NCBI GenBank assembly: GCA_905221615.1
Contig: CAJNDT010000968.1
Span: forward strand, 124,001 to 188,000
Reading direction: 5' to 3'
DNA: 64,000 bases
From: Symbiodinium sp. CCMP2592
Lineage: Eukaryota; Sar; Dinophyceae; Suessiales; Symbiodiniaceae
Positions 19,441 to 64,000 of this stretch are shown in pieces. The translations under genes and the position numbers were made by a program. Positions within the stretch are counted from its first letter, which is position 1; every line of letters begins with the position of its first letter. The notes beneath the pieces were generated by a model. That model did not search any database, was not told the origin of the DNA, and was given only the letters and a program-made list of their open reading frames with translations.

Positions 19441-19588
19441 ATCCTGCAGGGTCCCTAAACGTGGAAGCGAGGCATGGTCCCCTGAAATTCCAAATTCCGC
19501 ACTAAACCCCTAAAGCCCGAAACCTTAAACCCCTAAACGTAATGCCCTTAAGTTAGCCCTTGACCCTGAACCCTAATATCGCTGTTAG

Positions 19589-19674
19589 TCGACCAGCCCA
19601 GGTTTGCGCCGGAGGATGAGCCCATTGGCATCCCGACGAAAAGCCCGACCGGCGAGCTCAAGAGGACCGTCGTG
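19589..19674 (+). CDS. candidate exon of a fragmented gene
   Basis: Follows CTGTTAG and ends before GTGTAG. It reads DQPRFAPEDEPIGIPTKSPT then GELKRTVV. CCCTAA words precede it and GGTTTAGGG words follow. Phase-compatible with 20024-20129. Not recognised; possibly an upstream exon of the acyltransferase gene. Confidence 0.45.
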
Positions 19675-20023
19675 GTGTAGAGGTTCAGGGTTTGAGGGTT
19701 TAGGGTTGAAGGGTTTGCAGGGTTGTAGGGTTTAGAGTTTGGGCATTTTGGATTTTGGCTTTGAGGGTTTAGTGGATTATTTTAGGAAATAGTGGTTGAG
19801 GATCGGGAAGGCAGGACTCTGAGTACAGCTTCTTGAGATAAGCGCCCAGCCCCGCAGCCACAATTCCGAACACTTGAATCCACAGGCCCTGGTCTCTGAA
19901 GAATGGATGTTGGCCCCCAAACCCTTATAAACCCTTAGCCCCCTAACCCCGCCTTAAAGCCCTAAAGCACCCGAAACCCGAAAGCTGCTAAAATAGTAAA
20001 GCCAAGTGCCCCCAAAAGCTCAG

Positions 20024-20129
20024 CCAGAACTGCAGGAGCTCGCCCAAGCATTCCTTGGAAAGCACGAGGAAGCGCGAAGCACCGAGATCGAGTGGGAGCA
20101 CCCACTGCCACTGGAAAAAAGACCCGCAG
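20024..20129 (+). CDS. candidate exon of a fragmented gene
   Basis: Between AGCTCAG and a GT donor. 35 codons plus one base, reading PELQELAQAFLGKHEEARST then EIEWEHPLPLEKRPA, a charged helix-like peptide. The leftover base joins in phase to 20776. Confidence 0.5.
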
Positions 20130-20303
20130 GTTGTTGGATTGCCTAAACTCTGAGCCTTAAACGTTAAACCCTGAAAGTTCTGCGTTTCGAAGTTGGTGGT
20201 CCGAAGAGCAGAGATGTTCGAAGTGTTTGGGCTTCACGTGAGTCGACTTCAGGCTTGACGACTGTAGGCTGCCAGCGATAAACACAGCTGGAGCATCAGA
20301 ATT

Positions 20304-20401
20304 ATACGGACCTTAATGATTGCCTACACTTGCTATACTATTTTGGGGGTTCATCAATTTTAATGATGGTATACTGGGCCTTCTAATTATAACGGCCCCT
20401 C
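20304..20401. mobile_element. TIR element, family F
   Basis: Begins near CGGACCTTAATGATTG and ends near TTATAACGGCCCCT. Related to 29531, 33065, 53873 and 55007, which share GGGGCCTTAATAATTACCAA-like ends and an internal TAGTATA motif. Confidence 0.5.
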
Positions 20402-20676
20402 TCGTGTTGTCCGTGGTATGCCACAGCTTGGAGACGGACAAAAGCTAGAGTTTTGAAGGGCCTCCAAGAACAGAAAGAAAGCAACTAAATCCGAAACCAC
20501 TGGAATCATCATCGGTTTGCAGAGCCCTGGAAGCCCAAATATGCGCATTTTTGAAGTCTATGATCGCATGTTTTATGCGGTTTCGGGTTCAGGGTTTAAA
20601 CGTTTAGGCATTCTCGATACTCATTCATACACGCACTTTGTTACTGGTGCGTACTAGGTGTGGGGCAGTGTCCCAA

Positions 20677-20767
20677 CCCAGAGGCCCCAAAGTAGTTCCT
20701 TTTTGGGATTACCCTATATCGATTCTATATACGAACCCCCAAAAGGAACTACTTTGGGGCCTCTGGG
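20677..20767. mobile_element. TIR element, family B
   Basis: Inverted ends CCCAGAGGCCCCAAAGTAGT and its inverse, about 35 bp each. Same family as 25482-25571 and 62560-62649. It ends 8 bp before the exon starting at 20776. Confidence 0.8.
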
Positions 20768-20775
20768 AAATGCAG

Positions 20776-20834
20776 AGGCGGTCACCAACATGTTCGGGGC
20801 GACGGTCGCGGCCAGCGGCTATGTGGTGGGCAAG
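20776..20834 (+). CDS. candidate exon of a fragmented gene
   Basis: Between AATGCAG and donor GTCGGG. It reads AVTNMFGATVAASGYVVGK after two bases that complete the codon begun at 20129. Hydrophobic and glycine-rich. Not recognised. Confidence 0.45.
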
Positions 20835-20906
20835 GTCGGGGCCAGGGGGTCTCCAGGTCTGGGTGCACCCAGGCTTTCAATCAAAGGGTTCACAAGGGTT
20901 GTTAGT

Positions 20907-21024
20907 CTAGGACCTAGAGTAGGCCCTTATTCCCTTTTTAATTTTTAAGGGTTCAGGTTCCCTTGTAAGCCCCTTGAAACCAAAAAGGGCACCCTTTTTA
21001 TTCCTAGGTTACTCTTGGGTCTAG
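20907..21024. mobile_element. TIR element, family D, with 4-bp target duplication
   Basis: Ends CTAGGACCTAGAGTA and TACTCTTGGGTCTAG, flanked on both sides by TAGT (20903-20906 and 21025-21028). Second copy at 51940-52051 flanked by TCAT. Confidence 0.8.
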
Positions 21025-21109
21025 TAGTGGGTTTCACAAATTATCAAGACCCGCCCGTACATTAGGTAGCCGTCATCCCGGATGTTATAGATCTTCACCG
21101 AAGCCGCAG

Positions 21110-21128
21110 CCAACACTCATCATTGGAG
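21110..21128 (+). CDS. candidate micro-exon
   Basis: 19 bp, PTLIIG plus one base, between CCGCAG and GTATGA. In phase with 20834, but too short to trust alone. Confidence 0.2.
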
Positions 21129-21466
21129 GTATGAGGGTGTAATCAAAATCATGGCCGAGAGATGCAAGCCCCGAAAACGCACAACCCCTAAACCTGAAAT
21201 CCAAGCTTAGACCCGAACCTAAACTCCAAGCTCCTATGCCCCTAAATCCCATGCTCGAAAAACCTTAATCCCTAGACCTCAACCTCCAATCCCATCCACT
21301 AGCAGACTTCAAACCCAAAACCCTCATGATAAAAACCCGAAATCCTACAACCTACGCCCAAAACGCTAAACCCTGAGATACAGACCACACCCCATAACGT
21401 GGCCGCGCCTCAGACCCTCACATCTCTGCAGAACGCGGTAACCTCGGATCCGGCGGGGACCTCAAA

Positions 21467-23995: not shown

Positions 23996-24358
23996 GTCTG
24001 CACAGGGCACGGTATCGGATTTGAGCGTAAAGTCCTGCTTATGGGTTTGGCTTTTGGGTTTTGGGTTGAAGTTCGAAGTTACTCAAACCCTAAGGCCCTA
24101 AAGCCTCAATCTCTTAAACACTCAACCTCGGAGCCGTTGCATACCCATGCTGCAGAACCTTAAATCCTAAAGCCGTTACGTCTACACCCCGAAACTGAAA
24201 CCCCCAAATCCCCAATGCTCTAAAGGACCCGAGTTCGGGACCAGAAGGAAATCTCAGCTTTTGGTGTAGAGCTTAGGGTGTAGGGAATACATGTATACAG
24301 TATAAGGGATCCCCAAGGAATAGATATTACCAATATTGCTACTGTAGCCCACTCTGAG

Positions 24359-24438
24359 CTTCTGAAAGCTGCATCCGCGGAAACCCCCTACCGTGGACAG
24401 GACATGAGGCAAACCCCCATCATCCTCTGCAACCATAC
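24359..24438 (+). CDS. acyltransferase exon 1 (HX4D histidine)
   Basis: Reads ETPYRGQDMRQTPIILCNHT. It ends two bases into the Thr codon before a GC donor (GCGTGG). The catalytic His is the next-to-last residue. The start after CTGAG is the least certain boundary. Confidence 0.75.
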
Positions 24439-27400
24439 GCGTGGAGCTCGGTTTGCGTGCTGTTGACTTGTGCTTGGCAGCGCATAGAAGCCGCATGTCA
24501 TGCGATCTGCGGATTGAAAGTGAAAGGCTTCAGGCAGATTAACGTCTTCAGTGTCTGTTTAGCCGGGTAAGCACACACCAAGTAGAGGCACCAGCAAAAG
24601 CCACCCAAAACTCAAACGTGAGACACCAAACCCAAAGCCTACAAACACGACGTCAGTGTCTGGCCAGCCTGTCAATAGGGTTTCGGGGTATATTATACTA
24701 GAATTCTGACCCTCAACCCTAAACCGGGAACTCCTATATTATACTAGCATCACTATAATGAGTAAACCCCTATAACCCAAAAAACCCTAAATCCTAAATC
24801 CTGGGAGCCCCAAAATGGTACTCATATCTGCAATCGAGCTCCCAGGTGCTACCTGGACGGGATGGTGCTGGCTTCGGTCTTCCACGCACCGAAGATCATC
24901 GCCAAGAAGGGCACCCTGCTGGGGTCCCAGGGGGGGCCGGGGGGTCGTAGCCGGCATGCCGGTGAGACTCACAGTGGTGGTGTTGATGATGACGGTACAC
25001 AGTGACTACGAAGATGCTCATGACGATGACGGTGCACCTGTGGTAGATGAGTATCCAGATACAGAGAAAGAAGAAGATGAACGACAATGACGATTCCGGA
25101 GAAGATGAACGACACCGTAGATATGCTACCCTGATGGCGGTGATGATGATTATGATGATGACGGTGCTGATTGTGACGGTGATACTGATTGAGGTCGAGG
25201 CGGTGATGGTGATGCGTGAGCTCATGGCTTTTGTGTTCTTTGAGATGCGGGCGATCGGTGCATGTTGTCGTCCTCAGAACGCATTGTCGGCACGGGATGT
25301 CATATGGGAGTTTCCGAAAATAGGGGTACCTCATTTTGGGGTCCTGATAATAAGGATCCTATTAATTAGGGTACCATATTAGGGTCCCCTATTTTCGGAA
25401 ACTCCCATATCTGTATGTATGTAAGCATGTCAGCACGGAGAGTTCATGGCAACAGTCGCACACAGCATCGTGATGAGCCTACCCAAAGGCCCCAAAGTAG
25501 TTCCTTTTTGGGGTTCATATTTAGAATCCTATGAGGTAATCCCAAAAAGGAACTACTTTGGGGCCTCTGGGTAAACTGTTTGTGCGGAAGGTTTCAAGCA
25601 TCTTTTCGACCTGCTTCTGGCATTGTGTTGACGCGCTTCACAGAATGGTAGTCTTAGTTGTGGCCACGGAGATTGGTTGCTTAAGGTTCATGCAGAGGTC
25701 TGATTACATATGTTGTAAGGCCCTTGTTAATATCACTCATATAGCCGCAGCATACGCCCAAACCCTTGGTTGGTTGACAAACCGCCCTGGAAAGACTTGA
25801 CAGCCTCCTTGCGACAGAGTTGGACGATCTTGGCATCCATGGTGAGCACACCCACAGGCTGCAAGCTGCACCACCTAGGAATGTGCCCTTGATCGGGGCC
25901 TTTGCAGCTGACCTCGGTGTGATCGAGGTCCGGAGGGATGTGCAATCGTTGTGTTGCCGATTGCATGACGTAGGGGGGCCTGACGACTCTGCAAGGGATT
26001 TTGTAGTGCTGTTTGATACCTGTCAAGAGTGTTTCCTGAGAGGCAGGCGGATAGAGTCGGGTCGAGCCTCCAAGTGGCAATCCCGGCTCGGAAGGAAAGG
26101 AACACCCGAATACGGGAGCCTCAGTGATTAGTCATATGATTCCACAAACTCCTGTCCCTGAACGTAGAATGCTATGCTCCCTGCACTCCCTACACCGTTT
26201 GGCCTAGCTTCTTGATTCGAAACATCGCTTGGGGCTGGTCCAGGCAGCCGTTGTATAGGGTTGCTGTCATGGATTTATACAGTCAGTGTCTCAGAACGGT
26301 TTGCGCATATGCTGTCTAAGGCTTCATGTTCGATATCACCAGAGTTGCAACAATTCTCTTTTCTCTTTTGTTGCAGCCGTTTCAAGCTTTCTCTGATAGT
26401 TCCTCCTATTCATTCCTCCTCATGATGATGATGATGATGACGATCATCAGCTTCGCCACTCCTGAGCATCCCAGATGTCCCGACTACAAGACGTGAACAA
26501 CTCACGACAGCCCGCCCCTGACCAGCAAGGACTGCGACATGTTTGGGCACCGTGGGTACCAATCACCATCAACACTAAAGCATGCTTGATTGATGTCTGA
26601 CGAGGTAGCAACATTATGCCCTGGTATTCCTCGTATGGCTACACTACAAGCTGTGCAACAAGACGTGACCCTCTCTGAAGTCCAAGAGCTCTATTCCGGG
26701 CAGTTCTAAAGCCTAAACCAGGCAAAAAACCCTGTGCAGGTGGACCGGAGCGATCCCAAGTCCCGAGCAGCGGAGACCTCAGTCAGAATTCGTGAGGGTG
26801 TAACAAGGGTGTTATAATTAGGGGAATTAAGTATTACGTATCATCCACGCAAAGTTTGCAATCATCATCATTGCCGTTCGTATTCAAGCTATGACTCCTC
26901 ATGTTATCGATATTTGCAGCTTCTATTTGCAGATAAAGCCTTGTACAGTGCAGTTGCATAAAGTCCGCCAGACGTAATGGTTATTCAATCTTCCTGATGC
27001 AAAGGCTGATTATCTTAATGTATGCCATGCATGCGTCTGGTTTGCTTCGATTTGGGGGGCTGTTTCAAGGGCCCTGGCTCAGCGTTCGCCATCGTGGGCA
27101 TTCTCAGCAGTGTCCATGCATTAAGGTTCTTCGGTTTCGTCTTGAAGGCTTTCGGTCTTTCCTGGTGTTTCTGGCTTTGTCGAAGCCAGTGTAATGCCAC
27201 GAGCGACTTAAATACGGATCTTGCAATGGTGGCGCTGGGCAAAATCTAAAGGGCTAAATTGCCCGCCGTATCTCCCAGTCCACCGTCCCGAAACTTTTCA
27301 AGTACTCACACTGCAGGAGGCCGGGCATCAGTAGCCAACTTGAACCTTAACCCTAAACCCCAAAGCCTAAACCCTAGTCCCCTCCAAGCCCTGAAGCTCT

Positions 27401-28053: not shown

Positions 28054-31000
28054 TTAACACTGTTTAAGTTTGTACAAACCCGGAACACTTTGCATCCGCT
28101 AAGGACCATGTGACCTCTTGGAAATCCGGCAAGCAACCACTGCTGCTGTTTCCAGAGGCCCACCTGCATCCTAACAGCCCCCCAAAATCCGAAGCCCCGA
28201 ACGCTGGGTTCTTGAGGTTATGCTGCACGAAACTCTACGACCCGCTATGATATACTCTACCGAACTATACCATGAACAGCTCAAACCCCAGGCCAGACAC
28301 CTGCTAGACATGTTGGCTTGGAGCGCGAGTGGCCTTGCATGACTCCGGGGTCACGGATTGAACCAAGCGCTGAATCAAGAGAGACTCTACGGGGATACTA
28401 TTACTTACTATTTTTCTTCAGGGTTCTTCTATAGAGCTCTGAAAGTCAAGAAGGTCCCTCGGCCCATACCCTCGGGTCCTGGTGCATCTTGGCCAAAGTC
28501 CGTGAGCCCAAGCCCTGAAAACACCCTACGACGAAAAACCCGAAAAGCTTCCTCTGCACTAGTTTCAAGCTTTCAGTCACCGAATGAGCCGTTCCCCCCC
28601 TAAAGAAGAACCTAAACTACGTAAGCCTTCAACTCCTCATAACCGTCAGCCTCAAAGCTGTTGGCGCCGTAAAACCTTAAGCAAGCCTTACACACTAACA
28701 GCCCTAAACCTAATGTCCCGAACGAAACAACTAATATCCCCAAACAAGCCCGAAACACTACAGGTCCTAAACCCCCTAATATCCCTGAGCCCTCAAGTCT
28801 AAACCCACCGAAGCTGTCAGGGCACCACCAGCAATGGGCAACATCTTCTAGAGTCCGGGCCCCGAAGTTTGCTGCACAGACCGGGATTTGGGGCTTTCCG
28901 TTTTTTGGGGCTGTAGCTTTGTGGGTCCGGGTTTTTTTGGCTTAGGTTCTGAGGTTACGGATTCAGTCGTTTAGGGTTTAAAGGTTTCTTTTGTCGTAAG
29001 GGTTTGGAGCTTATGTATTGAGCCACCGAATACCATCGAGCCCTTATCCCATCCGACAAACCTTTAAACTCCAAACAGAAATCCGGCACCGTAAACACAA
29101 GACCCTTATCCCACCCCAAGCCATACCCCTTCCCCCACCAGGACAAGTAAAGCCTAAACTCTTAAACCCCAAACCTACGCATCATCGCCCTAAAACTTCA
29201 AATCCCAAGCCTAGACCCTGTACAAACCCTAAACTCTCAAATCCTAAACCCTCAAATCCTAAACCCTCTAGGCCCTAAAGCCCAAGAAGCCCTAAGCCTT
29301 ACAGCAATCCAGAGGGTCTCTCGGCCGCGATGTCGCTGCGAGGTTCAAGAAAGGCGCTTTCGTCCCGGGCGTTACCGTGCGGCCTGCTGCCAGAGCCCTG
29401 TGTGCCTTCGAAGGGTTGACGGCTTCATATAGGGGCCTAGATAATTGCCAATACTACCTTGGGAGGGCCCGAATTGCTTTAAAGGGTTCCTTAAAGGGGT
29501 CCATAAGGGATCTATGGTAGGGTTCTATGGTATAAGGGCCTTAATAATTACCAATACTATTTTGGGGGTTCCTTGTTACAAGTATAGTACAGTGGGCCCC
29601 AAAACCCTATTCCAACTGTCGAGGCGCCCCTACTTGGAGGATCAGTGGACTTAGTAAGTAAGGTTATAAGTACCTTAATTGGAGTTATAAGTATAGTTAC
29701 CCTAATTATAACCATAGTTATGAACTCCCATGATCCTTTAAGTATACTAGGATACTAGGGCTTAGTAGAGGGCTCAGCCTTATGAGGGTTTTGAGTAGCG
29801 TCGAAGTGTCCGGGGGTTCATGGGGTTTCGGATCCAGGGCTCTGGATTGAGGCTTCATGGCATGGTTTAAGTTTGAAGTCGAGGTAGTGGAGCTTTTTTT
29901 GGGTGGGTTTTAGTTAAGTTCCCTAGTCCTCAAAACTACACATGATATCAGATGGTCAGACTTACAACCCCAACCCTAAACCAAAAGCAAAATATGCACG
30001 AGGCCCTAGATTTGGAGGGCCGGGGGAGTTTTTGGGCGGCAGGAAGTCTGAGAAAATGTCGAGGTTGTTGGAACAAGTTCAATACAGAGGTTTGAATATC
30101 CGAGAATCAGTACAGCGCATCCCCTATTTCGTCCCTGTACAATTGACCGCACTGTACCGCAACAGCGTTTCTATGTAGAAATGCCCTTAGCCCCGAAAGG
30201 AACCCTCTTGGTCTTGGGGGAGGGTTAGAGTCGAGGGATTTAGGGGCTGTTAGGATCCTATGAGGGTTCTGTCAGAAAGTCCGGAAGGGATCCTCTGCTG
30301 AGGGTTCTGCACGGGTTCTACAAGGGTTTAGGGCTTTGAGGCCTTTTGGTTCCTAAACCCTAAACCCTGCAACGGTTTAGGGCTTACAGCGGCTCAGGGC
30401 TTTGTAGTTCGAGGCTTGTGGATTGTGGTGAGTGGGGTCACCTCGCATTCTCATGGAAAGTCTTACTGAGAGCCATCCTCAAGGTCCTAAATCCGTGAGG
30501 CTGATTCAGCCCCTGTGCAAGCTCCGACAACCCCTGCCAAGCCTCTTATACGAAGCCTTCGTGATCCGCTATCAGGCTCCTACTAGTGTACATTAGGTCG
30601 GTCCGGCTCGGCCTTGTTGGGCCGTCTTGTTTCGGTAGGTAACCCGAAGCGAGGTAGTGATTTTGAGTTTTCCGTAGTTCGTCGCACATTGGGGAGGACA
30701 AACCTTACCAAGCCCTTTCTCAGCCCCGCATACGTACCGTAAATGTGAAACTCAAGCCCCAAACCTTGAACCCTAAACCCGTAAAACCTCAACCCGAAGC
30801 TGTAAACCCCAAGCCCTAAACCCCGAGGTCCTGTACTATAGCGGATCTTGGGACCCAGCAAATGTCTACTACAGACAAAGCGACGACGGCAAGATTCAGG
30901 CAAGGCACTGGGAATACAGGGGTCTGAGCTTTCCCTCGCAAAATATTTTTCTTCTTGATGAAAGTACCACCAAAGCCTTGTTTTGTTGTCCCCAGTGGCG

Positions 31001-33866
31001 GGCCCTGAATTCTGAACCCAAAAACCCAAGAGCGGTACTGAGTGGCTTCGAGCGCAGGTTCGACTCTTCGATTTTCTTGGGGGTGTCATGCTATTCCCTT
31101 TCCAGTCTCTGATGTGTTTGTGCTTGTAGCGAAATATGCACCAAAACCCAATTCAAACCATCAAGGCCTCTTGTGCTACACGTGCGGAAGTACGGTTCTA
31201 TCGGGTTCGGGGTGCAGCGTTTTGAGTTTGAGTTTAGGGTTCTTCCGGTGTATCGCATTTAGAAAGGTCTCGGGTGTAGGTTTTTAGCTTCTGGTCTGGG
31301 GTTCGTAGCGCTCTCATGGTTTACAACGGCCGAGTTGCGTAATTCCTTGCGTACCTACATCCTGAACCCTGGACCCTGAACCCACACTGGCATAGCATAG
31401 GTGAGCAGATCCTACACCCTGAAATAGCTAGAATACTCTTCATACTTTTACTCCACCAACACAATCCCGGAATCCTTTCTTTTGCTTATAATAGTTAAGC
31501 TCGAAGTTTGTGGGCTCCACAGCCCATTACTTTTGCGTTCGAGTTCCGCAATGACTCAAACTTCAGGGTCCGACAATACCCAGAGACGAAGCTGCAGTTG
31601 CCAAAGATCCGAAAGACTCCGAGTGAGCACCAAGAACCCCCCAATTAAGGCATATGCCTTCAGCTATAGAGGGATCGTCAGTGTACTCCTAAAATTATAG
31701 GGTTTTGGAATTTCTGAGAACCCCGAATGGCCTACTTTGGGTTTCTCGTTTCTCGTTTCGACTTAGCTTTTTGAAGCCGAGCCCTGTTTGTCTCAGGCGA
31801 TCGGAGACACCGAGTGGGCCGAGCAGCGACATGCCTGAAGCTTCTACATTGGGGTTTAGGGTTTAGGGATTCTCTATGCTTTGACGGACGAGGTCTACTG
31901 CTTGTAGTTCTTGATAGCTGACGCAAAAGCTTCTTCTATCTTTTTGCCATATGAAATATGTCGCCGCTTTCCTGTTGATGTTGCATCCTGGCAGTTTCGG
32001 TCGTCGGGGCGCAGTGTTTTGGGTGCGAAGAGATCAAGGTCCGGAGGTGCGGTCTGTGGGGTCGAACGCCTTTATCCTTCCAACTTCAGGGAGGATTCTT
32101 GGTAAGGATCCGACGAGCCCGAAATACTGTTTGTTACCAACCCTGCCTGGAAACCCAACACGCCAAACCTGAGCCCTCACCGCTTAAACACTGTTTGTCA
32201 TTTTTGAGTGAGAGTTCGCGATAGATGTTGCTGAGACTCGGTGGCGATCCGTGGATGTTTCTGAGGTTCCTCGGACACATGATGCACTCGGTGCGCATCC
32301 GGGTGCTGCCACCCTACAAGCCTTCGCAGGCTGCGAGGGATAAATCGGCTTGAAGTTGCAGGATCTCCGGTTGTAGTTTTAGGGTATAGGTTCGGGGATT
32401 AGGGTCCGGGAGTCAGTTTTGCGGATTGAAACTGAGGTGTGAGATTTCTAGCATTGGTGGTGTCCTGCGTGTAGATCGACATAGAATTGCCCGCCTTTCA
32501 AAGAGACTCGATTCTGATTGTTAATTAAGGCCCCTATATTGAACCCGTATAGCTACCCTTAAACTCCGAAATCCTGAATCCTAAACCTGTACACTTACCC
32601 CTAACGGAACCCTTCTTTAACTTTTACATCCCCAACCGTGAGGAAACCGTCCATCAGACACCTTAACCTGGAAGCAAGGCTTGGGAGGATAGCCAAACGG
32701 ATTAGACAATGAGTAAGTTGGAGGATGCGGACTTGATGCTGAGACGGGTCTGCGGATATTGAACGCTTTGTTCCGACCTCAATTCCAGGAAGCCCGTCAC
32801 TAATGCTGTCATTGCGGGGAGGTTTGAAGCAAGTTGGGTTTCAGTCCGAAACCATGCTAATGCAGGAACCTGATTAATTGGGGTTCCTTATATGAATCCT
32901 ATTTTGGGGTTATAGGCCCAGGGTTTCTTAATCAGGTTCCTACATTATCCTACACAGGCGCTTTTAAAACTTACCACAGGCGGAGAAGCAAGATCCGCAG
33001 CTGTTCGCCAACAATGTCCGGGAGGCTCCGGGTTCTCTCCAGGGTTCTACCAGTAGGGGTTCATGTAGGGGCCTAAATAACTATTTTGCAGGTTCCTTCT
33101 TGGAATTATATAGTATACCCATAACACCCTATTCTGCTTATAAAGGCCCCTACATTATGCTTGTTTTGTTTTTGGGCCTGGCTGTACAGAAGCAGAAGAG
33201 AAAGCTTGAGCCTTCGAGCGCCCTGAACATTCCTGGGCTAAGAGTCTGGGATAGAAATCAGGGTTTCCGTTTCAGCTCTTCAGACAATAGCTCCCCAAAA
33301 TACGTATGCCCACATTGAACCCCAATGAAGTCTAGACACCAGGAGCCTGAAGGAAGCTTCGCAATCCTGAAGCTTTGCTAAGGCCTATCGCCAATATGTT
33401 GAAATTTCGTAACTTAGCACCCTGACACCTTAAATGCTTAACAACAGGGCGTCTATATACCAAGCACTCGCAAACTCCAAACTCCAAACCCTTAGCCCCA
33501 AAACCCCGCACCCCAACACCCACACCGTAACACCCACACCCTAACACCCAAACCCTGAACTCTCAAACGCCTGCTAGCCGAAAAAAAGCAGGAAGCCGAA
33601 ACCCCCGTGAACCCTGAACCCTAAGCTCTAAATCCAAAAAGAAAAACCCTGAGCCGTTTGTTTAAAATCTCCAAAAGCCTAGACCCTAACCTCGAAACCC
33701 TGAACCCCAAACCTTAAATCCGAAACCCCTAGCCTTTTCTCTCAAACCTCCAAAGGCAGGCTACATAAGCTCCACATAGTACTAAACCCTTAAGAGCCCT
33801 AAGCCCTTGCCTTCAAACCCCAAAAAGCAGGTGATGTCCAAGGCCCACGGAGAGCTTCGGTCGGAG
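24359..33866 (+). CDS. lysophospholipid acyltransferase (LPCAT/LPEAT-like), multi-exon, ends incomplete
   Basis: Eleven short exons give a collinear PlsC-family acyltransferase: 24359-24438, 24846-24923, 25879-25927, 26740-26793, 28104-28157, 28821-28852, 29343-29385, about 32031-32101, about 32225-32329, 32980-33024 and 33831-33866. Joined motifs are ILCNHT|CYLDG (catalytic HX4D), VPLIGAFAADLGVIE, VDRSDPKSR, LLLFPE|GTTSNG (substrate-binding FPEGT), FKKGAFVPG, ERLYPSNFREDSW, RIRVLPPYKPSQ and DPQLFANNVRE. The family transfers acyl chains from acyl-CoA to lysophospholipids at the ER membrane (Lands cycle). Order and spacing match plant LPEAT and animal LPCAT. Donors are GT and GC, possibly GA once. 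Junctions 4-5, 7-8 and 8-9 are not fully resolved. The N-terminus and any C-terminal domain are not defined. Confidence 0.82.
24846..24923 (+). CDS. acyltransferase exon 2 (HX4D aspartate)
   Basis: Follows CTCCCAG. Reads CYLDGMVLASVFHAPKIIAK then KGTLL, ending before GTCCCA. Supplies the Asp of HX4D. Confidence 0.82.
25305..25407. mobile_element. TIR element, family A, TA target duplication
   Basis: Clean copy: TGGGAGTTTCCGAAAATAGG at the left, exact inverse at the right, TA on both sides. Lies inside intron 2 of the acyltransferase. Confidence 0.85.
25482..25571. mobile_element. TIR element, family B, TA target duplication
   Basis: 90 bp, ends CCCAAAGGCCCCAAAGTAGT and near-perfect inverse, bordered by TA. 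Lies 74 bp after the family A element in the same intron. Confidence 0.85.
25879..25927 (+). CDS. acyltransferase exon 3
   Basis: Between CACCTAG and GTCCGG; one base plus 16 codons reading NVPLIGAFAADLGVIE. Matches the P-hxG stretch that follows the HX4D block in LPCAT/LPEAT proteins. Phase fits exons 2 and 4 exactly. Confidence 0.82.
26740..26793 (+). CDS. acyltransferase exon 4 (R-x-DP-x-SR motif)
   Basis: Follows CTGTGCAG. Reads VDRSDPKSRAAETSVRIR. The end is at CGT before GAGGGT (a GA donor) or a few bases later. Matches the family block before FPEGT. Confidence 0.8.
27990..28049 (+). repeat. CT microsatellite
   Basis: About 60 bases of TCTC with two interruptions, within acyltransferase intron 4. 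Confidence 0.9.
28104..28157 (+). CDS. acyltransferase exon 5 (LLLFPE)
   Basis: Between GCTAAG and a GC donor (GCCCAC); 18 codons reading DHVTSWKSGKQPLLLFPE. The FPEGT motif is cut after Glu. Confidence 0.83.
28821..28852 (+). CDS. acyltransferase exon 6 (GTTSNG)
   Basis: Only 32 bp: GTTSNGQHLL plus two bases, between CTGTCAG and GTCCGG. Completes FPEGT and joins exon 7 as HLLEFKKGAF. Confidence 0.82.
29343..29385 (+). CDS. acyltransferase exon 7 (FKKGAFVPG)
   Basis: Follows TGCGAG. Reads FKKGAFVPGVTVRP, the conserved F-x-GAF-PG-PVQP block. The end is proposed at a GC donor (GCTGCC). Confidence 0.82.
29386..32030. other. acyltransferase intron 7, 2.6 kb
   Basis: Holds a family F element (29531-29633), TTTAGGG- and CCCTAAA-type words and several open frames without motifs (for example 30583-31089 minus). 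Nothing else is supported. Confidence 0.45.
29531..29633. mobile_element. TIR element, family F
   Basis: Left end AGGGCCTTAATAATTACC, right end CCAACTGTCGAGGCGCCCCT; the centre carries AAGTATAGTACAG. Confidence 0.6.
32031..32101 (+). CDS. acyltransferase exon 8
   Basis: Reads GVERLYPSNFREDSW, corresponding to the RYP...F..SW block. It ends before a strong donor GTAAGG. The start may be after GCGAAG (32031) or CCGGAG (32047). Confidence 0.65.
32225..32329 (+). CDS. acyltransferase exon 9
   Basis: Reads LGGDPWMFLRFLGHMMHSVR then IRVLPPYKPSQ, matching the VE-LP-Y-PS block. Ends before a GC donor (GCTGCG). The left boundary is uncertain. Confidence 0.72.
32861..32943. mobile_element. TIR element, family I
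   Basis: TGCAGGAACCTGATTAA at the left and TTAATCAGGTTCCTACA at the right, 80-bp hairpin within intron 9. Confidence 0.65.
32980..33024 (+). CDS. acyltransferase exon 10 (DP-LFANNVR)
   Basis: Between TTACCACAG and a GC donor (GCTCCG); AEKQDPQLFANNVRE, a near-exact match to the family's E-DP-LYA-NVR block. Confidence 0.83.
33065..33154. mobile_element. TIR element, family F
   Basis: TAGGGGCCTAAATAACTA at the left and TTATAAAGGCCCCTA at the right, 41 bp after exon 10. Confidence 0.65.
33831..33866 (+). CDS. acyltransferase exon 11
   Basis: Between AAAGCAG and a GC donor (GCTTCG); 12 codons, VMSKAHGELRSE, in phase with exon 10 and resembling the VMA-AL-G continuation of NVR in LPCATs. Confidence 0.7.
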
Positions 33867-43498: not shown

Positions 43499-43550
<52 letters not shown>

Positions 43551-55104: not shown

Positions 55105-55204
55105 TTGACCCTACAACCTTGACCCTACAACCTTAAAGCATAGATCCCAGAGTCCGACAACATTTAGAGAGCTGTAGAAAGCTTATGGAGCCCTAAGCCG
55201 TACT

Positions 55205-55275
55205 TTAACCCGGAAGAACCTACCGTTTTAAGGACTTTTATAATGAAATCATAAGGAACCCTAAAAGGGTAGGCT
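55205..55275. mobile_element. diverged TIR element, family G
   Basis: GAACCTACCGTTTTAAGG at the left and AAGGGTAGGCTATTC at the right. Similar in layout to 36569-36657 and to 40910-40985. Confidence 0.45.
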
Positions 55276-55675
55276 ATTCAGGGTTAAGATAAACCCTACA
55301 ACCGAGCCTGCATACGCAGAAATCAGCTGAAGAGGACGCTGTGGGAACCTATGGTTTGTACTTTTGGGGACCTAACGTCGCCCATCGGTTGACGTTTTTG
55401 GTAGTCCTAAACCCTAAGCCTTGAGCCTCAGGCCCTAAACCCTACACCTTAAACCCTAAATTGCACTAACTGAACGCCTTCCTCTAATGTGGGACCCGCA
55501 ATAATCAGAATAGGGTTTTGGGCGAGATTACATATACTGGATAAGTACAATATCAGGAGCCCGACCTTAACCTACCATAACCAACTTTTTGGTCGGCTCT
55601 CATGATATATAGACTTTGTAAGGACCCTACAAAAGAAGTAGGTGTAGGTACTTCAGGGTAGGGAAGTAAGAGTAA

Positions 55676-55829
55676 AGCCCCTAAACCCTAAACCTCTAAA
55701 CCCTAAACCCTAAACCCCTGAACCCTAAACCCCTAAACCCTAAACCCTAAACCCCTAAACCCTAAACCCCTAAACCCCTAAACCCTAAACCCCTAAACCC
55801 TAAACCCCTAAACCCTAAACCCCTAAACC
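55676..55829 (+). repeat. telomere-like CCCTAAA array
   Basis: About twenty CCCTAAA/CCCCTAAA units, the longest block of this orientation, running up to the candidate exon at 55844. Confidence 0.9.
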
Positions 55830-55843
55830 CTTAATTCACTCAG

Positions 55844-55885
55844 GCCCTCGTCCTCAGCAACCAGGCGCCGGCAGGGTTCGATTTC
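55844..55885 (+). CDS. candidate exon between opposed telomere-like arrays
   Basis: Between CACTCAG and donor GTGGGT; ALVLSNQAPAGFDF, phase 0. CCCTAAA array immediately upstream, TTTAGGG array from 55890. Confidence 0.45.
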
Positions 55886-55889
55886 GTGG

Positions 55890-56030
55890 GTCGGGGGTTT
55901 GGGTTTTGGGTTTGGGGTTTAGGGCTTTAGGGCTTTAGGGCTTTAGAGTTTAGGGTTTAGAGTTTGGGGTTTAGGGCTTTAGGGCTTGGGTTTAGAGTTT
56001 GGGGGTGTGGGGTTTGGGTTTGGAGTTTTC
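55890..56030 (+). repeat. telomere-like TTTAGGG array
   Basis: GGGTTTAGGG-type units; inverse orientation to 55676-55829. Confidence 0.85.
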
Positions 56031-56418
56031 GGTGTTCCTGGAAGAGTAATTTTGGAGTTGTTATACGGGCTACCATGCGAGCGGGGTTTTAGGAGTTCCT
56101 TCAAGAGTTCCGCCACAAGGGTCAGAAAAAGGGCTTGCAGGGGCTACTGTAGTCCAGGGGTTTAGGGGTTTTGAAATGGGTTTAAGGGGGTTTTGGTGTT
56201 CAAAGTTTCTGTCTTGGGGCCTTTCGTCTTGTCGGGTTTGCTGGCAGCCGTCCATCCTGTGATCAACTCTGACAAAGGGACCTGGGTGGAGATATGAATT
56301 TTGAGCACCGCGCCAGAACAGACGAGGGAGGTTGGGTTGCTATTCCTGAAGCCTTCGTGTTTGTAAAGGGTTTTAGGGTTCTTGCGCCGGTTTTTGTCAT
56401 CCGGTGACCCTCTGCCAG

Positions 56419-56451
56419 GCCGTAACTGACCGCGAGTATGCGCGGCCGCAG
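56419..56451 (+). CDS. candidate exon
   Basis: Between CTGCCAG and donor GTTCCA; AVTDREYARPQ, phase 0 at both ends, compatible with 55885. The frame stays open further, so the exon may be longer. Confidence 0.4.
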
Positions 56452-57609
56452 GTTCCAACGCCCCCGCCGGCCGTTCTTGCGCGATTTTTGGAAGTTTACC
56501 TTGTTGGGAGTTCGGTGGGTTTCGGAGCTCTTCCACTACCTTTCTTGGAGTTGCGATTTGGCATTCGGGGCTTTGGGGTTTGGCCGGTTTGGCCTTTGAT
56601 CTCGGGTTCTCCACAACTTGAAAAGAACCAGCAAAGCGACGCTCGAAGGAGTAGCATCCTCAACACGAAGCAAGAAGGCCAAACTGCTTCCACTGAACCC
56701 TACAGCCCTAAATCCCGCCCCCAGATCAGAAACGCCAGGTTCGAGTGGCCTACGAGGTTCTTTGCTGGCCTGCAGCTGAAGGAGAAAGCTTGAGGGGTTC
56801 GCTTAAGACGGCTTTAGGTTTGAGCTTGGGGGTTTCAGAGGCTTGTGATTTAGGGTTTAGGCCTTTTAAGGATTCAGAGTTTTGTGGCTTTAGGTTTTGG
56901 TGCAAGGGCGAAGGGTTTAGTGTTTAGGTTTTGAGGGTTTTAGGGTGGGCTCTTGCCGTCCATCCGGGTAGTGACGTTACAGAGGACGAGTTTGGGAGGT
57001 GAGATGCACAGTTTGCCCCCTTGCTCGTAGCCTTGTGTGTTTGTGTGGATATCCTGAACCCTCAGCACTGTACCCAAGATCATGCTTGTCCACTACAATC
57101 TACCGTCCTGTGTTGTCGGGTCTTGTCAAATTTCCCGAAGACAGAAAAATATAGGGACCCTATGTTAAAGCAGGTTATGGTGGGGTTTTGGAAGACCTCA
57201 CGACCTTTACCCGTAAGCCTAAAGCGCGAAACCCCAAGACGCCCAAAATCCTAAACCTTTGAGATAAACAACAAACCGTAGAACTTTACAACCCAGAAAC
57301 ATCTGACACACAGACAGCGAAGAAACTCCCAGAACAGACAAGCCTGAACCCGCAAAGCCTAAACCCCAAACCATGAACAAAACCGTAGTCCCGAAAAACC
57401 CCACAGCCAGCCCCAAAACCCGAAAACCCTCAAACCCCAGACCTTAAACCCCAAAGTCTAAAACAGAAAAGCCCAAACCCATATCCTATACGCTCAAACC
57501 GACAAACCCTATAGACCCAAACCACTATAGATCCCACTTGAGGATCCCTTTTTTGGCAACCCTTGAGGGATCCATTTGGAAACCTCCCAAGGAACCCTGA
57601 ATCACTGAG
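56452..57609. other. spacer with open but unassigned frames
   Basis: An open frame runs to 56793. A 16-bp island before GTGAGA near 56991 may be a micro-exon. Otherwise telomere-like words. Confidence 0.35.
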
Positions 57610-57655
57610 GTTCATCGACGTCGTCTTCGAGGATCGGCCGATTCAGAGGCCCGGC
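57610..57655 (+). CDS. candidate exon, phase uncertain
   Basis: Between TCACTGAG and donor GTGGGT; one frame reads FIDVVFEDRPIQRPG. Phase does not fit 56451 directly, so another exon may be missing. Confidence 0.4.
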
Positions 57656-58468
57656 GTGGGTTTCGGTTTAGGGATTAGGGTTTACGGCCTTGGGGGTTTA
57701 GGGTCTAGGGTAACGTTCAGGGTTCAGGGGTTAGGGTTTAGGGCTTAGGTTGCTTGGGGGTTTTCTGAGGACCTGAGGTTTATTTAGATTTCTGTTGAGA
57801 CATTTGCGACTTTGAGGTCAAGGGAGCCCGAATCGCATACCTCGGAGCGCAAGGCATGATAGTTGGGCAACACACCGGGTTTAGTGTTTTAGGGTTTAGG
57901 TGTATGCCTTGATCAACGGGAGTTGGAGTCTCTGGGCAAGTTTCGGGTGCAATCAAGAGCTTGCAAGGCCATGCCAATGCAGAGCGGCCCATAATATTGA
58001 TGTATCCGGATGGTATTTCATTTCGGGTTCCACATGGATCTGCTCGTGTAAGTCCTCTGTTTACGCTTTGGTTGCCCGTGCCCCAAGGCCTAAATCCCGA
58101 AAAGCCGAACTTCAGGTTCTGGTTCCTGGAGACCGTCGCGAGGATGCCGTACTTTGCCTACACCTCTGCACCTGCCTCGGCTTCTTAGCGGTTAGCGAAC
58201 CCTGAAAGAAAGCTCACAGAACCCTGAACAGGAACCTTTCTGGGATCCTCATTGAGGGGCTTAGCCTTGCAATCCTAAGTTTTCCAGAAGCACTTCCCGT
58301 GAGATCTTTCTGCTGGTGCAACTAGGGTTCATGGTCTACTGGACATAGTTTTGCGGCAGTTGGGCTTCATGGTCTATTGTCTACTTGATGTTTTTTTTAA
58401 GGGTTGCGGAGGCCTTAGGATGTAGGATTTGGGCTTCGGGTTTTAACGTTCAGCAGTAGATGTAGATA

Positions 58469-58571
58469 TGGGGGTTTCCGAAAATAGGGCACCCTAATAT
58501 AATACCCGAAGTAGTAGGAGCCTCATTATAAGGACCCCCAATAAGGTATCCCTAATTTTCGGAAACTCCCA
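58469..58571. mobile_element. TIR element, family A, TA target duplication
   Basis: TGGGGGTTTCCGAAAATAGG and near-perfect inverse, TA borders. Confidence 0.83.
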
Positions 58572-58674
58572 TATTATATGACACCTTATGTAAAGCCCTA
58601 AGAAGCCCTAGGACCCGTATAAACTATGAACTCCATAAGACCCTAGTCTTGTTGTAAAGGCCACAATTAGGATG

Positions 58675-58808
58675 TCCTTAAGGGGGGGTGGTCCAAGGGG
58701 GGTAGGTAACCTAGTAATCCCCATTATTCCCCAATACTCCCTAAGCTTCCCTAAGGTTCCCCAAAGCTCCCTAGTACCCTCCCCCCTTGAACCACCCCCC
58801 CTTAAGGA
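58675..58808. mobile_element. TIR element, family J
   Basis: TCCTTAAGGGGGGGTGGTCC at the left and its inverse (one mismatch over 28 bp) at the right; inner part made of CCCTAAGCTTCC-like words. Confidence 0.75.
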
Positions 58809-58989
58809 TCCTATAACACAAAGTCGTAAAATCCAGTACCCTTCTTTCTGATTATACTGTAATATATCTTAAGCTCTTGTCTCCACCTTGGCCCCAAACC
58901 TCTTAAGCCCTCAACCCTAAACCCTAAACTTCTGGACCCTCAACCCTAAACCCCAAGCCCTAAACCGTAAACCCCCCGAAAGATGTCAG

Positions 58990-59058
58990 GTGCTACATCT
59001 CTACGAAACCTTCGGCTGGTGGCGCTCGCCGGAGCTCCGCGCGGTGCATGCGGCCGGG
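58990..59058 (+). CDS. candidate exon between opposed telomere-like arrays
   Basis: Between GATGTCAG and donor GTCTCC; 23 codons VLHLYETFGWWRSPELRAVH then AAG. Strongly protein-like. CCCTAAA words end 15 bp upstream; a long TTTAGGG array starts at 59096. Not recognised. Confidence 0.52.
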
Positions 59059-59095
59059 GTCTCCAGCAGCTTTTTGGGTCAGGGCTTGTTTAGGG

Positions 59096-59258
59096 TCTGG
59101 AGATTTAGGGTTTGAGGGTTTAGGGTTTTAGGGTTTAGGGTTTTAGGGTTTTAGGGTTTTAGGGTTTTAGGGTTTAGGGTTTAGGGTTTAGGGTTTTAGG
59201 GTTTAGGGTTTTAGGGTTTAGGGTTTAGGGTTTTAGGGTTGAGGGTTTGAGGGTTTAG
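59096..59258 (+). repeat. telomere-like TTTAGGG array
   Basis: About twenty TTTAGGG/TTTTAGGG units, the longest block of this orientation. Confidence 0.9.
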
Positions 59259-59799
59259 TCGGGTTTAGGCTTTTCGGGTATCGAAAGGTTGTGTGGTTGT
59301 GAGGGTCCTGGTCTGCTTGAGCAGCCACTGGTTCGGTACCTCCGAAACCGAGAAACACACCCCAAACCCCTAAACTCATCATAACTGGGTCAGCTTTGCA
59401 CCGACAGTGGAGCTTTCGGTAATTTCCGAAACCGGAAAGCACACCCCAAAGCCTGAAGGCCCTAAACCGACCATCGCTGGGTCAGTGTTGCACCGACAGG
59501 GCGAACTGCGGAGCTTGGAAGCACAATGTAGGTCTTCCAGGGCTCAGGCATCCCTTTGTTCGGGGTTAAGGAGGCTTGTGTAGGGTTGCTGTAATGGCTT
59601 TGTATAACGGTTGAATAGAGGCTGTATTGGGGTTACGAATTCAGGCCTTTGGTCTCAAGGGTTAGAGCATGTCCTGAACCCTCAGTGCAAACGCCTCAAG
59701 GACTTGACCCTAAACCCAAAACTCTAAGCCTTAAGCCCTAAACCTTAGAGCCTAGTTTGCTGAAGTCTGGGTGGCGGTAGCTTTTCCGACAATACGCAG

Positions 59800-59841
59800 G
59801 CGGAGGAGAACAACGAGTCTGGCTCTTATTCTGACCCCGGG
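59800..59841 (+). CDS. candidate exon
   Basis: Between TACGCAG and donor GTCTGG; 14 codons AEENNESGSYSDPG, phase 0 at both ends. Confidence 0.42.
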
Positions 59842-59938
59842 GTCTGGGGTCTAAATTCCACGGTTGCAGGGCTTTCGGGGTTTTGGTGTTCAGGCTTCTT
59901 GCGTTTAGGGTTTGAAGTTAATTAGTTTGGGTTGAGTG

Positions 59939-59941
<3 letters not shown>

Positions 59942-59969
<28 letters not shown>
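59942..59969 (+). repeat. AT dinucleotide microsatellite
   Basis: Fourteen uninterrupted TA units. Confidence 0.95.
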
Positions 59970-59972
<3 letters not shown>

Positions 59973-60619
59973 CCTTTGTAGTAACCATTATAGCCCCCTT
60001 TAAAGGAATCCTATTCTAATTGTTCATTAAAGCCCCTTTATCAAAGTTTGAGGTTAGTTTGGGTTGAGTGTGCCCTACAAACTCATGATTTCACAGAGAC
60101 CTCAAAGCCGCTCTCTTTGCTACACCTGCTCCCCCACATTACCCTATTCTAATTATTAAGGCCCATACATTATCTGTCTTTGAGGTTTCGGGTTGAATTT
60201 CGTGCTTGGAGCTTCTTGGTTTCTGACGTAGGCCTTACCTGAACCCCAAAAGACCTACCCATGTAGGGTTTTGCAGAGCGAGATCATAGCAAGGAACCCT
60301 ACGAATGTAGGTCTGTTATGGTTTGGCCGGTCGCCACGCTTTAGGATGTGGTGGGTGAGAGGTTTGTGCATACATAGGTGTGTGGGAGTCGACAGCTGCT
60401 TAGCCGAGACTTTTTGTAGAGGGGATCCTTGGGCATTGAGCTCCTTGTGAGGAGATCCTAGGCAAAAGGGGAAACTATCTTTGGACTTTTGCTGGGACCG
60501 GTATTCTGATCCGTTCCGATCTCCAAACCGAAACGTGTACACACACCCTCAAAAATTTTGGTAAGTTGTAGTAGCTCCTTTATGTAGCCTTGATCACAAG
60601 CTTTTAAAGGAGCCCTCAG

Positions 60620-61930: not shown

Positions 61931-61993
61931 CTTGAACCGTGGCTTGGGATTCACATGATGAATCTAAAGCCATCAAGTTTCTGGAAGATGCAG
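61931..61993 (+). CDS. candidate exon with possible GA donor
   Basis: Follows CACCACAG; 21 codons LEPWLGIHMMNLKPSSFWKM then Q, in phase with 61818, before GAAATC. Confidence 0.35.
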
Positions 61994-62210
61994 GAAATCC
62001 CATGCCTGGAAGGCAAGCAAAGCCTTAAAGCCAGAGCCCGAAAGTCTGAAAAGCAATGCCGTCTGAAGCCCTGTAAAGCCCAAGCCCATACACCTTAATA
62101 GCCCCACAGCCCTTCAACTAAAGCCTAAGTACAGCCCGAGAGTCGCTGAGTCTGAAAGCCCACGGGCCCTGAACCGGTGGGGTTTCTTGAGCCGCTTTTA
62201 CAGCTGGCAG

Positions 62211-62229
62211 GTGGTCTTCAAGGGAATCG
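62211..62229 (+). CDS. candidate micro-exon
   Basis: VVFKGI plus one base, between CTGGCAG and GTAGTT; phase follows 61993. Confidence 0.3.
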
Positions 62230-62253
62230 GTAGTTTGTGCCACCCTTCACAAG

Positions 62254-62296
62254 CTTTGGAATTGTCGATGACACGAAGCACTTGCTTCAAGCCGAA
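62254..62296 (+). CDS. candidate exon, frame uncertain
   Basis: Between TTCACAAG and a GC donor. The phase-consistent frame reads LELSMTRSTCFKP; the alternative FGIVDDTKHLLQAEATN looks as protein-like. Confidence 0.3.
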
Positions 62297-62336
62297 GCCA
62301 CCAACTAGGGAGTTTAGGAGGCTGAGTGTGCGTCAG

Positions 62337-62393
62337 CTTTGCACTCCCCGTGGGCCCACCAGAACGGCTGGCTTGCAAAGCTCTTCCACGCAG
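62337..62393 (+). CDS. candidate exon
   Basis: Between TGCGTCAG and donor GTTCTT; one base then FALPVGPPERLACKALPR plus two bases. Confidence 0.42.
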
Positions 62394-62559
62394 GTTCTTT
62401 GCTCAGCACGGTGCTGTGGCATACTACTGGCTCCTGGTGTTGTGCGCGTCTCAGACTGGACAGGGCTCAGCCTAGGACAACTTTAAAGGCCTTGATGCGA
62501 AACCCCACACGCACAAAAATCCAGAACTGCATGTCTTGCTGTTGAAAATCCACCGGCTA

Positions 62560-62649
62560 CCCATAGGCCCCAAAGTAGTTCCTTTTTGGGATTACCTCAT
62601 AGGATTCTAAATACGAACACCCAAAAGGAACTACTTTGGGGCCTTAGGG
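62560..62649. mobile_element. TIR element, family B, TA target duplication
   Basis: 90 bp, CCCATAGGCCCCAAAGTAGT and near-inverse, TA at both borders; same length as 25482-25571. Confidence 0.83.
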
Positions 62650-62929
62650 TAGGCATGCCCTTAGGGCTTAGGTACAACAAATCCTCATCTTACAGGGTTC
62701 TCACGGCCTCAAAAGCCAGAAGCCGTGAACCTTCAACCCCAAACTCCGAAACCCTGAAAAACAAAAAAGCAGAAATGCCTGATCGAAGAAGATGTGCTTG
62801 ACAAAGTCAGAAAGATGATGTGGTTTAGGGCTAACCGTGAGGAAGCCAGGCGATTTTCGGAATTTGGATTCAGGGTTTAGGGTTTCGGGTCTAGGTCCAG
62901 GATGTCGGGAGGGGGAAATTAAATTTCAG

Positions 62930-63010
62930 GTAGCAACACCTGTAAGCAAGCCACACATTGCCACAACTGGAGCTCCGAAACTTATCGTTGGGGTTGTCTG
63001 CTCATCTCAT
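62930..63010 (+). CDS. candidate exon, end not defined
   Basis: Follows AATTTCAG; VATPVSKPHIATTGAPKLIV. Phase does not follow 62393 directly. Confidence 0.3.
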
Positions 63011-63678
63011 CGTGTGCCCCAGCCCTTCGCCCTCATTTCCAGACCCCTTTCACCCCATTTCGCCTTCAGCCCGAAACCCCAAGTCCTCATTTCTGAGTCT
63101 TAGGCCGCATACCCTTCCTCAGGCTATATAATCCTAAGACCTTATCTCCTCGTTTTTGTTTTCATAGTAGTATTCAACTAAACCGTGTCGCCCCAGGTTT
63201 TTCGTGGTGGATCCCAAGTGGTCCTACAACTTTAGCCGCCTTATTGAGGTGCTTGGAGAACTTTTTCAGGGTTTAGGCTTGGGGTTTAGAGTTTAGTGTT
63301 AAGGGTTTAGGTGTTTAGGGCTTCGTGGTTCTGGGTTTAGGCTTAGGGTTTAGAGTTTAAAGTTTCTCAATATCTTTCGGTGTTTCCTGGAAGGTTGTAC
63401 AGGTGCGTCAAAGGGTTGACAAAGGATGTTGCGAATGTTTGGGGGCTCGAACACGCAGTTTGGCAGAGCTTCATAGGGTTTTACAATTCGGTGAAGGGCT
63501 TTATCTTTCAGGAATAAGGGTTGGGGTCATGGGCTTATGGCTTGCACGTCGGGTTTACGAAGTTAAGGCTTCATCTTCGATGGCGAAGCCTCAAGGCGGA
63601 GGCCATTACTACTTGTAGGTGGCACTTTGGGAAACTTTAGACTTGCCTGTATGGTTCATAGAGGTGCCTTACCGCCAG

Positions 63679-63715
63679 AACTGCGCCCTGGTGGCGTTGG
63701 CGGGGGTGGTGGTGG
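63679..63715 (+). CDS. candidate exon, hydrophobic
   Basis: Follows TACCGCCAG; NCALVALAGVVVAG, perhaps part of a membrane segment. The end is ambiguous among several GT sites. Confidence 0.3.
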
Positions 63716-63940
63716 CAGGGACTGTGCCATGAAACCTATCCTCCTGACATTTCTTGACCCATAAACCTCCTAAACCCTAAACCTATGCCCAAGACATTTC
63801 CTAACACCGAATAAACTCTGATATCCCAATTAAGCCTTAGGCGAGGCGAACGCGAGCGACAGTAGACCCTAAACGCTTAACCCGAAGCCTTCCAGAAAGC
63901 CCCCAACCCTAAAACCCGAAGCCCTCAACTCTTGTGACAG

Positions 63941-64000
63941 GCCCATGCCGTGGACACCTACGGCGAGTTCGTTGACGCCAACAAGGAGCGTCTGAAGAGC
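63941..64000 (+). CDS. candidate exon, cut by the window end
   Basis: Follows TGTGACAG and stays open to the edge: AHAVDTYGEFVDANKERLKS. Strongly protein-like after CCCTAAAA words. Not recognised. Confidence 0.5.

What the first reader, a model, noticed from the sequence alone, without database searches (positions are those of the whole stretch)
19500..64000. Exon islands bracketed by inverted telomere-like repeats: intron ends are mutually complementary
On the plus strand, CCCTAAA-type words tend to precede exon islands and TTTAGGG-type words tend to follow. Clear cases: the exons at 34738, 40191, 46638, 51129, 55844 and 58990, plus acyltransferase exons 6 and 11. Each intron therefore tends to start with TTTAGGG and end with CCCTAAA, which can pair in the pre-mRNA and bring the splice sites of long introns together. 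The orientation switch also predicts where exons are. I know of no established description of this in dinoflagellates, but I could not search. The exceptions (weak signal around exons 2 and 5) show it is a tendency.
Basis: partly seen in the sequence, partly recalled or inferred. Interest (0 to 1): 0.8.

Follow-up and report, generated by a model that had tools for sequence, protein, structure and literature searches.

The report
Exons bracketed by outward-facing telomere-like repeats
In this alga's genome, short exons inside long introns tend to be preceded by CCCTAAA repeats and followed by TTTAGGG repeats; the order bias is seen across the genome but is uneven from exon to exon, and the idea that each intron's own two ends pair with each other is not supported.

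Summary
Real as a bias, not a rule.

Window: nine acyltransferase exons chosen by protein homology (six within or reaching into a Pfam match, E=3.9e-15) have, within 300 bp, 10 CCCTAAA and 0 TTTAGGG upstream, 2 TTTAGGG and 1 CCCTAAA downstream; G+T step 0.22, p=0.013 (heptamer score p=0.063). The skew is confined to about 150 nt from the exon.

Genome (1.1 Gb): CCCTAAA..TTTAGGG pairs 150-180 bp apart number 128,010, the opposite order 50,132; at 450-480 bp 94,480 and 63,844. Twenty brackets average 61% central G+C, exon-like.

Against: 26 of 36 kinesin exons lack the word; over 63 exons, 20 of 32 informative ends fit, p=0.11.

Mechanism: an intron's own ends pair little better than unrelated ends, and pairs bracketing an exon are as strong and closer. 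Best reading: degenerate inverted telomere-like termini of long introns, probably introner-like in origin, perhaps marking splice sites locally. Inverted repeats at dinoflagellate intron ends are published; this telomere-like, exon-phased form was not found in my searches.

The parts
24346..24438 (+). acyltransferase exon D (ends PIILCNHT)
   Evidence: in the Pfam Acyltransferase match of the spliced product; flank counts; a GC donor fits
24717..24791 (-). CCCTAAA pair before exon E
24846..24922 (+). acyltransferase exon E (CYLDGMVLASVFHAPKIIAKKGTLL)
25878..25937 (+). acyltransferase exon F (NVPLIGAFAADLGVIEVRR); no exact heptamer within 300 bp
28104..28157 (+). acyltransferase exon H (DHVTSWKSGKQPLLLFPE); no exact heptamer within 300 bp
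28598..28708 (-). CCCTAAA pair before exon J
28821..28861 (+). acyltransferase exon J (GTTSNGQHLLESG); heptamers on both sides in the claimed order
28970..28976 (+). TTTAGGG after exon J
29188..29279 (-). three CCCTAAA before exon K
29315..29412 (+). acyltransferase exon K (RFKKGAFVPGVTVRP)
   Evidence: first part inside the Pfam match
30829..30898 (+). acyltransferase exon L, CCCTAAA pair 30771-30820 before it
   Evidence: frame and motif by eye; outside the Pfam stretch; family likeness recalled
32225..32332 (+). acyltransferase exon N, TTTAGGG 32378 after it
   Evidence: outside the Pfam stretch; likeness recalled
32979..33040 (+). acyltransferase exon O; no exact heptamer within 300 bp
   Evidence: outside the Pfam stretch; likeness recalled

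Best explanation
The ends of many long introns in this dinoflagellate carry 100-200 nt of degenerate telomere-like repeat in inverted orientation: TTTAGGG-like at the 5' end and CCCTAAA-like at the 3' end. Shown: the order bias in the genome, its excess at exon-like spacing, its limit to about 150-200 nt around the window's exons, and its absence around 11 kinesin exons next to short introns. Inferred: the two ends are the worn inverted termini of intron-making inserts (introner-like elements, or repeats that grew from such termini). Also inferred: they persist because G-triplet-rich starts and C/A-rich, CTAA-containing ends mark each splice site locally for the spliceosome, not because the two ends of one intron find each other.
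For: Orientation around homology-backed exons. Genome-wide excess of R..F over F..R pairs, 2.55-fold at 150-180 bp and 1.48-fold at 450-480 bp. 54 against 16 distinct places in the first 656 kb of contig C1, p=2.9e-6 (rows merged by hand; test). Skew fades beyond 150-200 nt. Central G+C of 20 R..F brackets 0.608 against 0.464 for 22 F..R intervals of a systematic sample (lengths not matched); published coding G+C of Effrenium voratum is 61.0% (PMC11114475). Heptamers near 10 of 25 isolated kinesin exons and 0 of 11 with a neighbouring hit within 1 kb, p=0.016. No clear own-intron pairing preference. The same word in reverse complement at both ends is what inverted termini would leave.
Against: 26 of 36 kinesin exons have no exact heptamer within 270 bp, so it cannot be a required splice signal. 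No family of near-identical inserts with target duplications was shown. In the acyltransferase gene most heptamers lie 25-150 nt from the exon, not at the junction. The exon-level test over 63 exons is not significant. In 36 kinesin exons G+T skew is higher downstream in only 21, p=0.076. No transcript data.
Confidence: 0.4

Rival explanations
1. One reading: the 5' and 3' ends of each intron base-pair in the pre-mRNA and bring the splice sites of long introns together.
For: Ends are complementary and more stable than random segments: -77.3 against -62.5 kcal/mol; kinesin exons next to short introns lack the word.
Against: Own ends pair little better than other combinations (-77.3 against -74.2) and no better than the pair bracketing an exon (-84.7), which is much closer in the RNA and would favour exon skipping or circles.
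Confidence: 0.17
2. Purely passive relic: introner or MITE termini, or telomere-like arrays grown by slippage, with no effect on splicing.
For: Introner elements are reported as more prevalent in free-living dinoflagellates (PMC10666404 and PMC10522408 passages; PMC11114475 section 14). A 128-bp element with inverted termini lies beside a kinesin exon in L043. Most kinesin exons do without the word.
Against: Passive insertion alone does not predict one favoured orientation against exons unless the insert itself makes the intron.
Confidence: 0.28
3. Telomerase or telomere capture at breaks: both ends of a broken gene were capped with telomere repeat and then joined, so the intron has telomere-fusion orientation and each exon island has chromosome-end orientation.
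For: The word is the plant-type telomere repeat reported for dinoflagellates (PMC11453091 passages). The favoured order is CCCTAAA-exon-TTTAGGG. Telomerase-linked repair insertions are reported for mammals (PMC2246262, search listing).
Against: No empty orthologous site compared; introns of about 0.4 to 6 kb need large filler; tracts are degenerate.
Confidence: 0.07
4. One reading: the eye picks exons where the strand switches, and the exons are not real.
Against: Exons chosen by homology show it, and the genome count needs no exon calls.
Confidence: 0.08

Closest known systems
Introner elements of dinoflagellates (Amoebophrya, Prorocentrum cordatum, Suessiales)
   Same: Inverted repeats at the two ends of introns, able to form a hairpin; more common in free-living species (PMC7789003, PMC10666404, PMC10522408; passages seen).
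   Different: The published search looked for 8-20 nt inverted repeats and 3-5 nt direct repeats within 30 bases of the intron ends (PMC10666404); 3.2-6.3% of Symbiodiniaceae genes contain introner elements (PMC10522408). Here a telomere-like word recurs over about 150 nt and is shared by different introns.
Nonconventional introns of euglenids
   Same: Intron ends complementary (PMC4770533, abstract in listing).
   Different: Here borders of the G[T/C]-AG type fit the homologous exons, and pairing is not specific to the intron.
Interstitial telomeric sequences
   Same: Telomere word inside chromosomes.
   Different: Here order and spacing are phased to exon-like islands; in mammals the sequences are linked to break repair (PMC2246262, abstract in listing).
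Intronic G-triplet splicing enhancers (recalled, no call)
   Same: G-rich runs just inside the 5' splice site.
   Different: Here the 3' end carries the reverse complement.

Membership tests
Introner element | inverted repeat at both ends of the same intron | tested here: inconclusive
   Oriented repeats present as a tendency, but generic among introns and mostly 25-150 nt inside; the published 30-base criterion was not run.
Introner element | many near-identical copies | not tested
Introner element | target-site duplication at exon borders | not tested
   Needs exact transcript-supported borders.
Nonconventional euglenid intron | non-canonical borders | tested here: inconclusive
   GT/GC donors and AG acceptors keep the acyltransferase motifs in frame, but I placed borders at such dinucleotides, so this is not an independent reading.
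Nonconventional euglenid intron | structure specific to one intron brings its ends together | tested here: not met
   Own -77.3, exon-bracketing -84.7, other -74.2 kcal/mol.
Interstitial telomeric sequence | exact telomere word in tandem | tested here: met
   Two-unit 14-mer 242,927 forward and 244,814 reverse against 209 and 224 for the control.
Interstitial telomeric sequence | inserted at a repaired break (empty orthologue) | not testable with these tools
   The tool says this genome has no relatives held.

The most novel reading that the evidence does not exclude
Long introns here were born as telomere-capped breaks: each exon island keeps the outward-facing telomere orientation of a tiny linear chromosome and each intron that of a telomere-telomere fusion, giving a genome-wide signpost for exons.
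Probability: 0.07. Interest if true: 0.9.

Novelty: new variant of a known kind. Interest (0 to 1): 0.6.

Why it matters
If it holds with transcript data, a simple strand-oriented telomere word helps to predict where tiny exons lie in multi-kilobase dinoflagellate introns, which would help gene finding. It would also tie the great abundance of telomere repeat in this genome to intron birth or splice-site marking.

Tried and rejected
Codon-model exon finding was too weak: predictions hardly exceeded reversed-sequence controls, so it is not used as evidence. Frame-by-frame Pfam scans of raw DNA miss short exons: eight frame-stretches of the window's plus strand gave only WWE and PARP families; plus-strand frames of L020 and L022 gave nothing. 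Not scanned: the minus strand, the first 19 kb, and the third frame of 49-64 kb. In one search the L022 pair of exons reached only E=0.064 (HATPase_c) and exons A-C only E=0.013 (a ubiquitin-like domain), both below Pfam's cut-offs, so neither is counted as proven. HSP90 mostly has short introns without the word; its one long gap (C680) is ambiguous, because CCCTAAA follows an exon there and may precede an undetected one. The chaperonin family gave 8 matches, too few to use. Adjacent-switch distances in the 200-kb systematic sample point the same way but are not significant (median 184 against 352 bp, p=0.18; window 188 against 321, p=0.14). PDB search: only chance-level matches. Rfam: no hit in the window. 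Dynein AAA_9 exons were located but their flanks could not be fetched. The F..R count at 60-90 bp did not complete, so the R..F count of 29,925 has no partner and is not used. Some of the 63 exons come from near-identical HSP90 copies and are not independent. The 150-180 bp gap was chosen after seeing it in the sample and window (48 against 27); at 60-90 bp that small sample showed the reverse (9 against 19).
Full report
SETTING. The window is G000:C968:124001-188000 of a 1,098,105,373-base assembly in 5,383 contigs. The DNA is dinoflagellate-like. Size, G+C near 50% and long introns fit Effrenium voratum (PMC11114475: G+C 50.6-50.9%, mean gene 20 kb, intron sizes peak at 1 kb; passages and section 14 seen). 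That identification is my inference; no tool named the organism. Below, F = TTTAGGG and R = CCCTAAA on the exon's strand.

THE OBSERVATION. The window has 102 F and 121 R; 15 of these 223 lie before 19 kb. They come largely in same-strand runs. In 19.5-64 kb the G+T fraction varies about four times more than the purine or G+C fraction at 100 bp.

INDEPENDENT EXONS IN THE WINDOW. Reading frames with lysophospholipid-acyltransferase motifs were found by eye (motif knowledge recalled; DNA) and spliced. The product matches Pfam PF01553 Acyltransferase with E=3.9e-15 over residues 23-131 of 224. Exons D, E, F, H, J and the first part of K lie in that match; L, N and O rest on recalled family likeness. 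I did not use the repeats to choose them, though several were first seen in repeat-bounded intervals. For these nine exons, 300 bp upstream hold F 0, R 10; 300 bp downstream hold F 2, R 1. The mean G+T step is 0.22 (p=0.013 in 2,000 circular shifts); the heptamer score gives p=0.063. Adding A, B and C (unproven) gives p=0.001 and 0.037. All rotations within 150 bp: upstream F 2, R 45; downstream F 11, R 0. The skew holds from 0 to 150 nt and is gone by 150-200 nt in the acyltransferase gene; in the other nine small exons it fades by 300 nt. After masking exact heptamers, downstream skew still exceeds upstream skew in 8 of 9 acyltransferase exons.

GENOME-WIDE, WITHOUT EXON CALLS. The two-unit 14-mer occurs 242,927 times forward and 244,814 reverse, against 209 and 224 for the reversed-pattern control. 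R followed 150-180 bp later by F occurs 128,010 times; the opposite order occurs 50,132 times; controls 562 and 799. At 450-480 bp the counts are 94,480 and 63,844; controls 576 and 777. So the order bias is 2.55-fold at exon-like spacing and 1.48-fold further out; only these two spacings have both counts. Overlapping pairs inflate both counts. Merged by hand into distinct places (rows within 200 bp), the first 655,564 bases of contig C1, the only stretch for which rows of both orders were listed in full, hold 54 against 16 (p=2.9e-6). I fetched 20 of the first 22 distinct R..F brackets; the two left out lie in L009. Their central 60 bp average 0.608 G+C. In a systematic sample (bases 50,001-60,000 of 20 contigs) the centres of 31 R..F intervals average 0.51 and of 22 F..R intervals 0.464 (p=0.048; brackets against F..R p=7e-5; lengths not matched). 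In window plus sample, whole R..F intervals have more G+C than F..R intervals (0.531, n=54, against 0.475, n=35; p=2.7e-4). Published coding G+C for E. voratum is 61.0% and intronic 50.1%. Pfam found no family in three typed peptides taken from the brackets, so their exon nature is likely but not proven.

LIMITS. Of the 20 sampled 10-kb stretches five are dense in the word (L009, L010, L020, L022, L023); the others have 12 or fewer copies. Thirty-six kinesin exons found by Pfam over the genome mostly lack it: 26 of 36 have no exact heptamer within 270 bp; totals F up 3, R up 13, F down 9, R down 14, of which 11 belong to one exon. G+T skew is higher downstream than upstream in 21 of 36 (p=0.076). 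Clear cases are L066, L049 (upstream only) and L070 (downstream only by exact word). L043 fits by exact heptamers but has two F rotations within 150 bp upstream. Misfits are L046, partly L048, and L056, L057 and L065 with F upstream. Exons with another kinesin hit within 1 kb have no heptamer within 270 bp (0 of 11); isolated ones do in 10 of 25 (p=0.016). Over 63 homology-found exons (9 acyltransferase, 36 kinesin, 18 HSP90), 13 of 21 upstream and 7 of 11 downstream informative ends fit the rule; pooled 20 of 32, p=0.11; per exon 13 of 24, p=0.42. It is a tendency of some genes, apparently those with long introns, not a rule.

MECHANISM. I computed duplex energies between the first and last 150 nt of introns around 18 window exons. 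Own intron ends average -77.3 kcal/mol, ends that bracket one exon -84.7, all other combinations -74.2, random segments -62.5; 5'-5' pairs average -71.9 (G-U pairs count) and 3'-3' pairs -31.8. The own partner is not clearly preferred (mean rank 7.7 of 18; exon-bracketing partner 6.7). Some exons taken as neighbours have, or may have, missed exons between them. Pairing of intron ends is thus possible but not specific, and the nearest partner brackets the exon, which would promote skipping or circular RNA. What needs explaining is that both intron ends carry the same word in reverse complement, only near the ends. Inverted termini of an intron-making insert explain that best; local splice-site marking can explain why it persists. 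Both are inference.

PRIOR WORK. [quoted passage not shown] the original, doi 10.1016/j.cub.2022.11.046, is not held). Plant-type TTTAGGG telomeres of dinoflagellates are in the same review. Searches listed no paper that, by title, start of abstract or the passages I saw, describes telomere-word orientation around exons. The library is partial and supplements were not read.

Noticed in passing
1-3300 and 7606-10629 (+): Two long single-exon ORFs built of a repeated motif like SLEGIQLPSSLQSLTFG (FNIP-like, name recalled), with a further repeat stretch near 16.2-17.2 kb; this part has few telomere heptamers.
   Followed up: no
47999-49699 (+): A long exon with WWE and PARP catalytic domains amid tiny exons, possibly retroposed.
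   Followed up: partly
52109-53335 (+): A 409-codon open frame with ankyrin-like repeats (by eye; this frame was not scanned with Pfam).
   Followed up: no
L043 730-857; similar ends seen by eye in L023, L010 and L030: Short elements with inverted termini like CTTGGAGGATCATGGGACTTAGTAAG, one beside a kinesin exon: candidate introner or MITE family (for the others).
   Followed up: partly
G000 contig C325 26.6-78.7 kb: Tandem array of HSP90 genes; gaps of roughly 80-100 bp between some neighbouring exon hits.
   Followed up: no
L019 (G000:C501:50001-60000): A 10-kb stretch with 29.5% G+C and extreme G+T skew swings, unlike the rest of the sample: organelle, contaminant or satellite.
   Followed up: no
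43390-43665: Long trinucleotide-like run that reads as poly-Y/T/L in three minus-strand frames.
   Followed up: no
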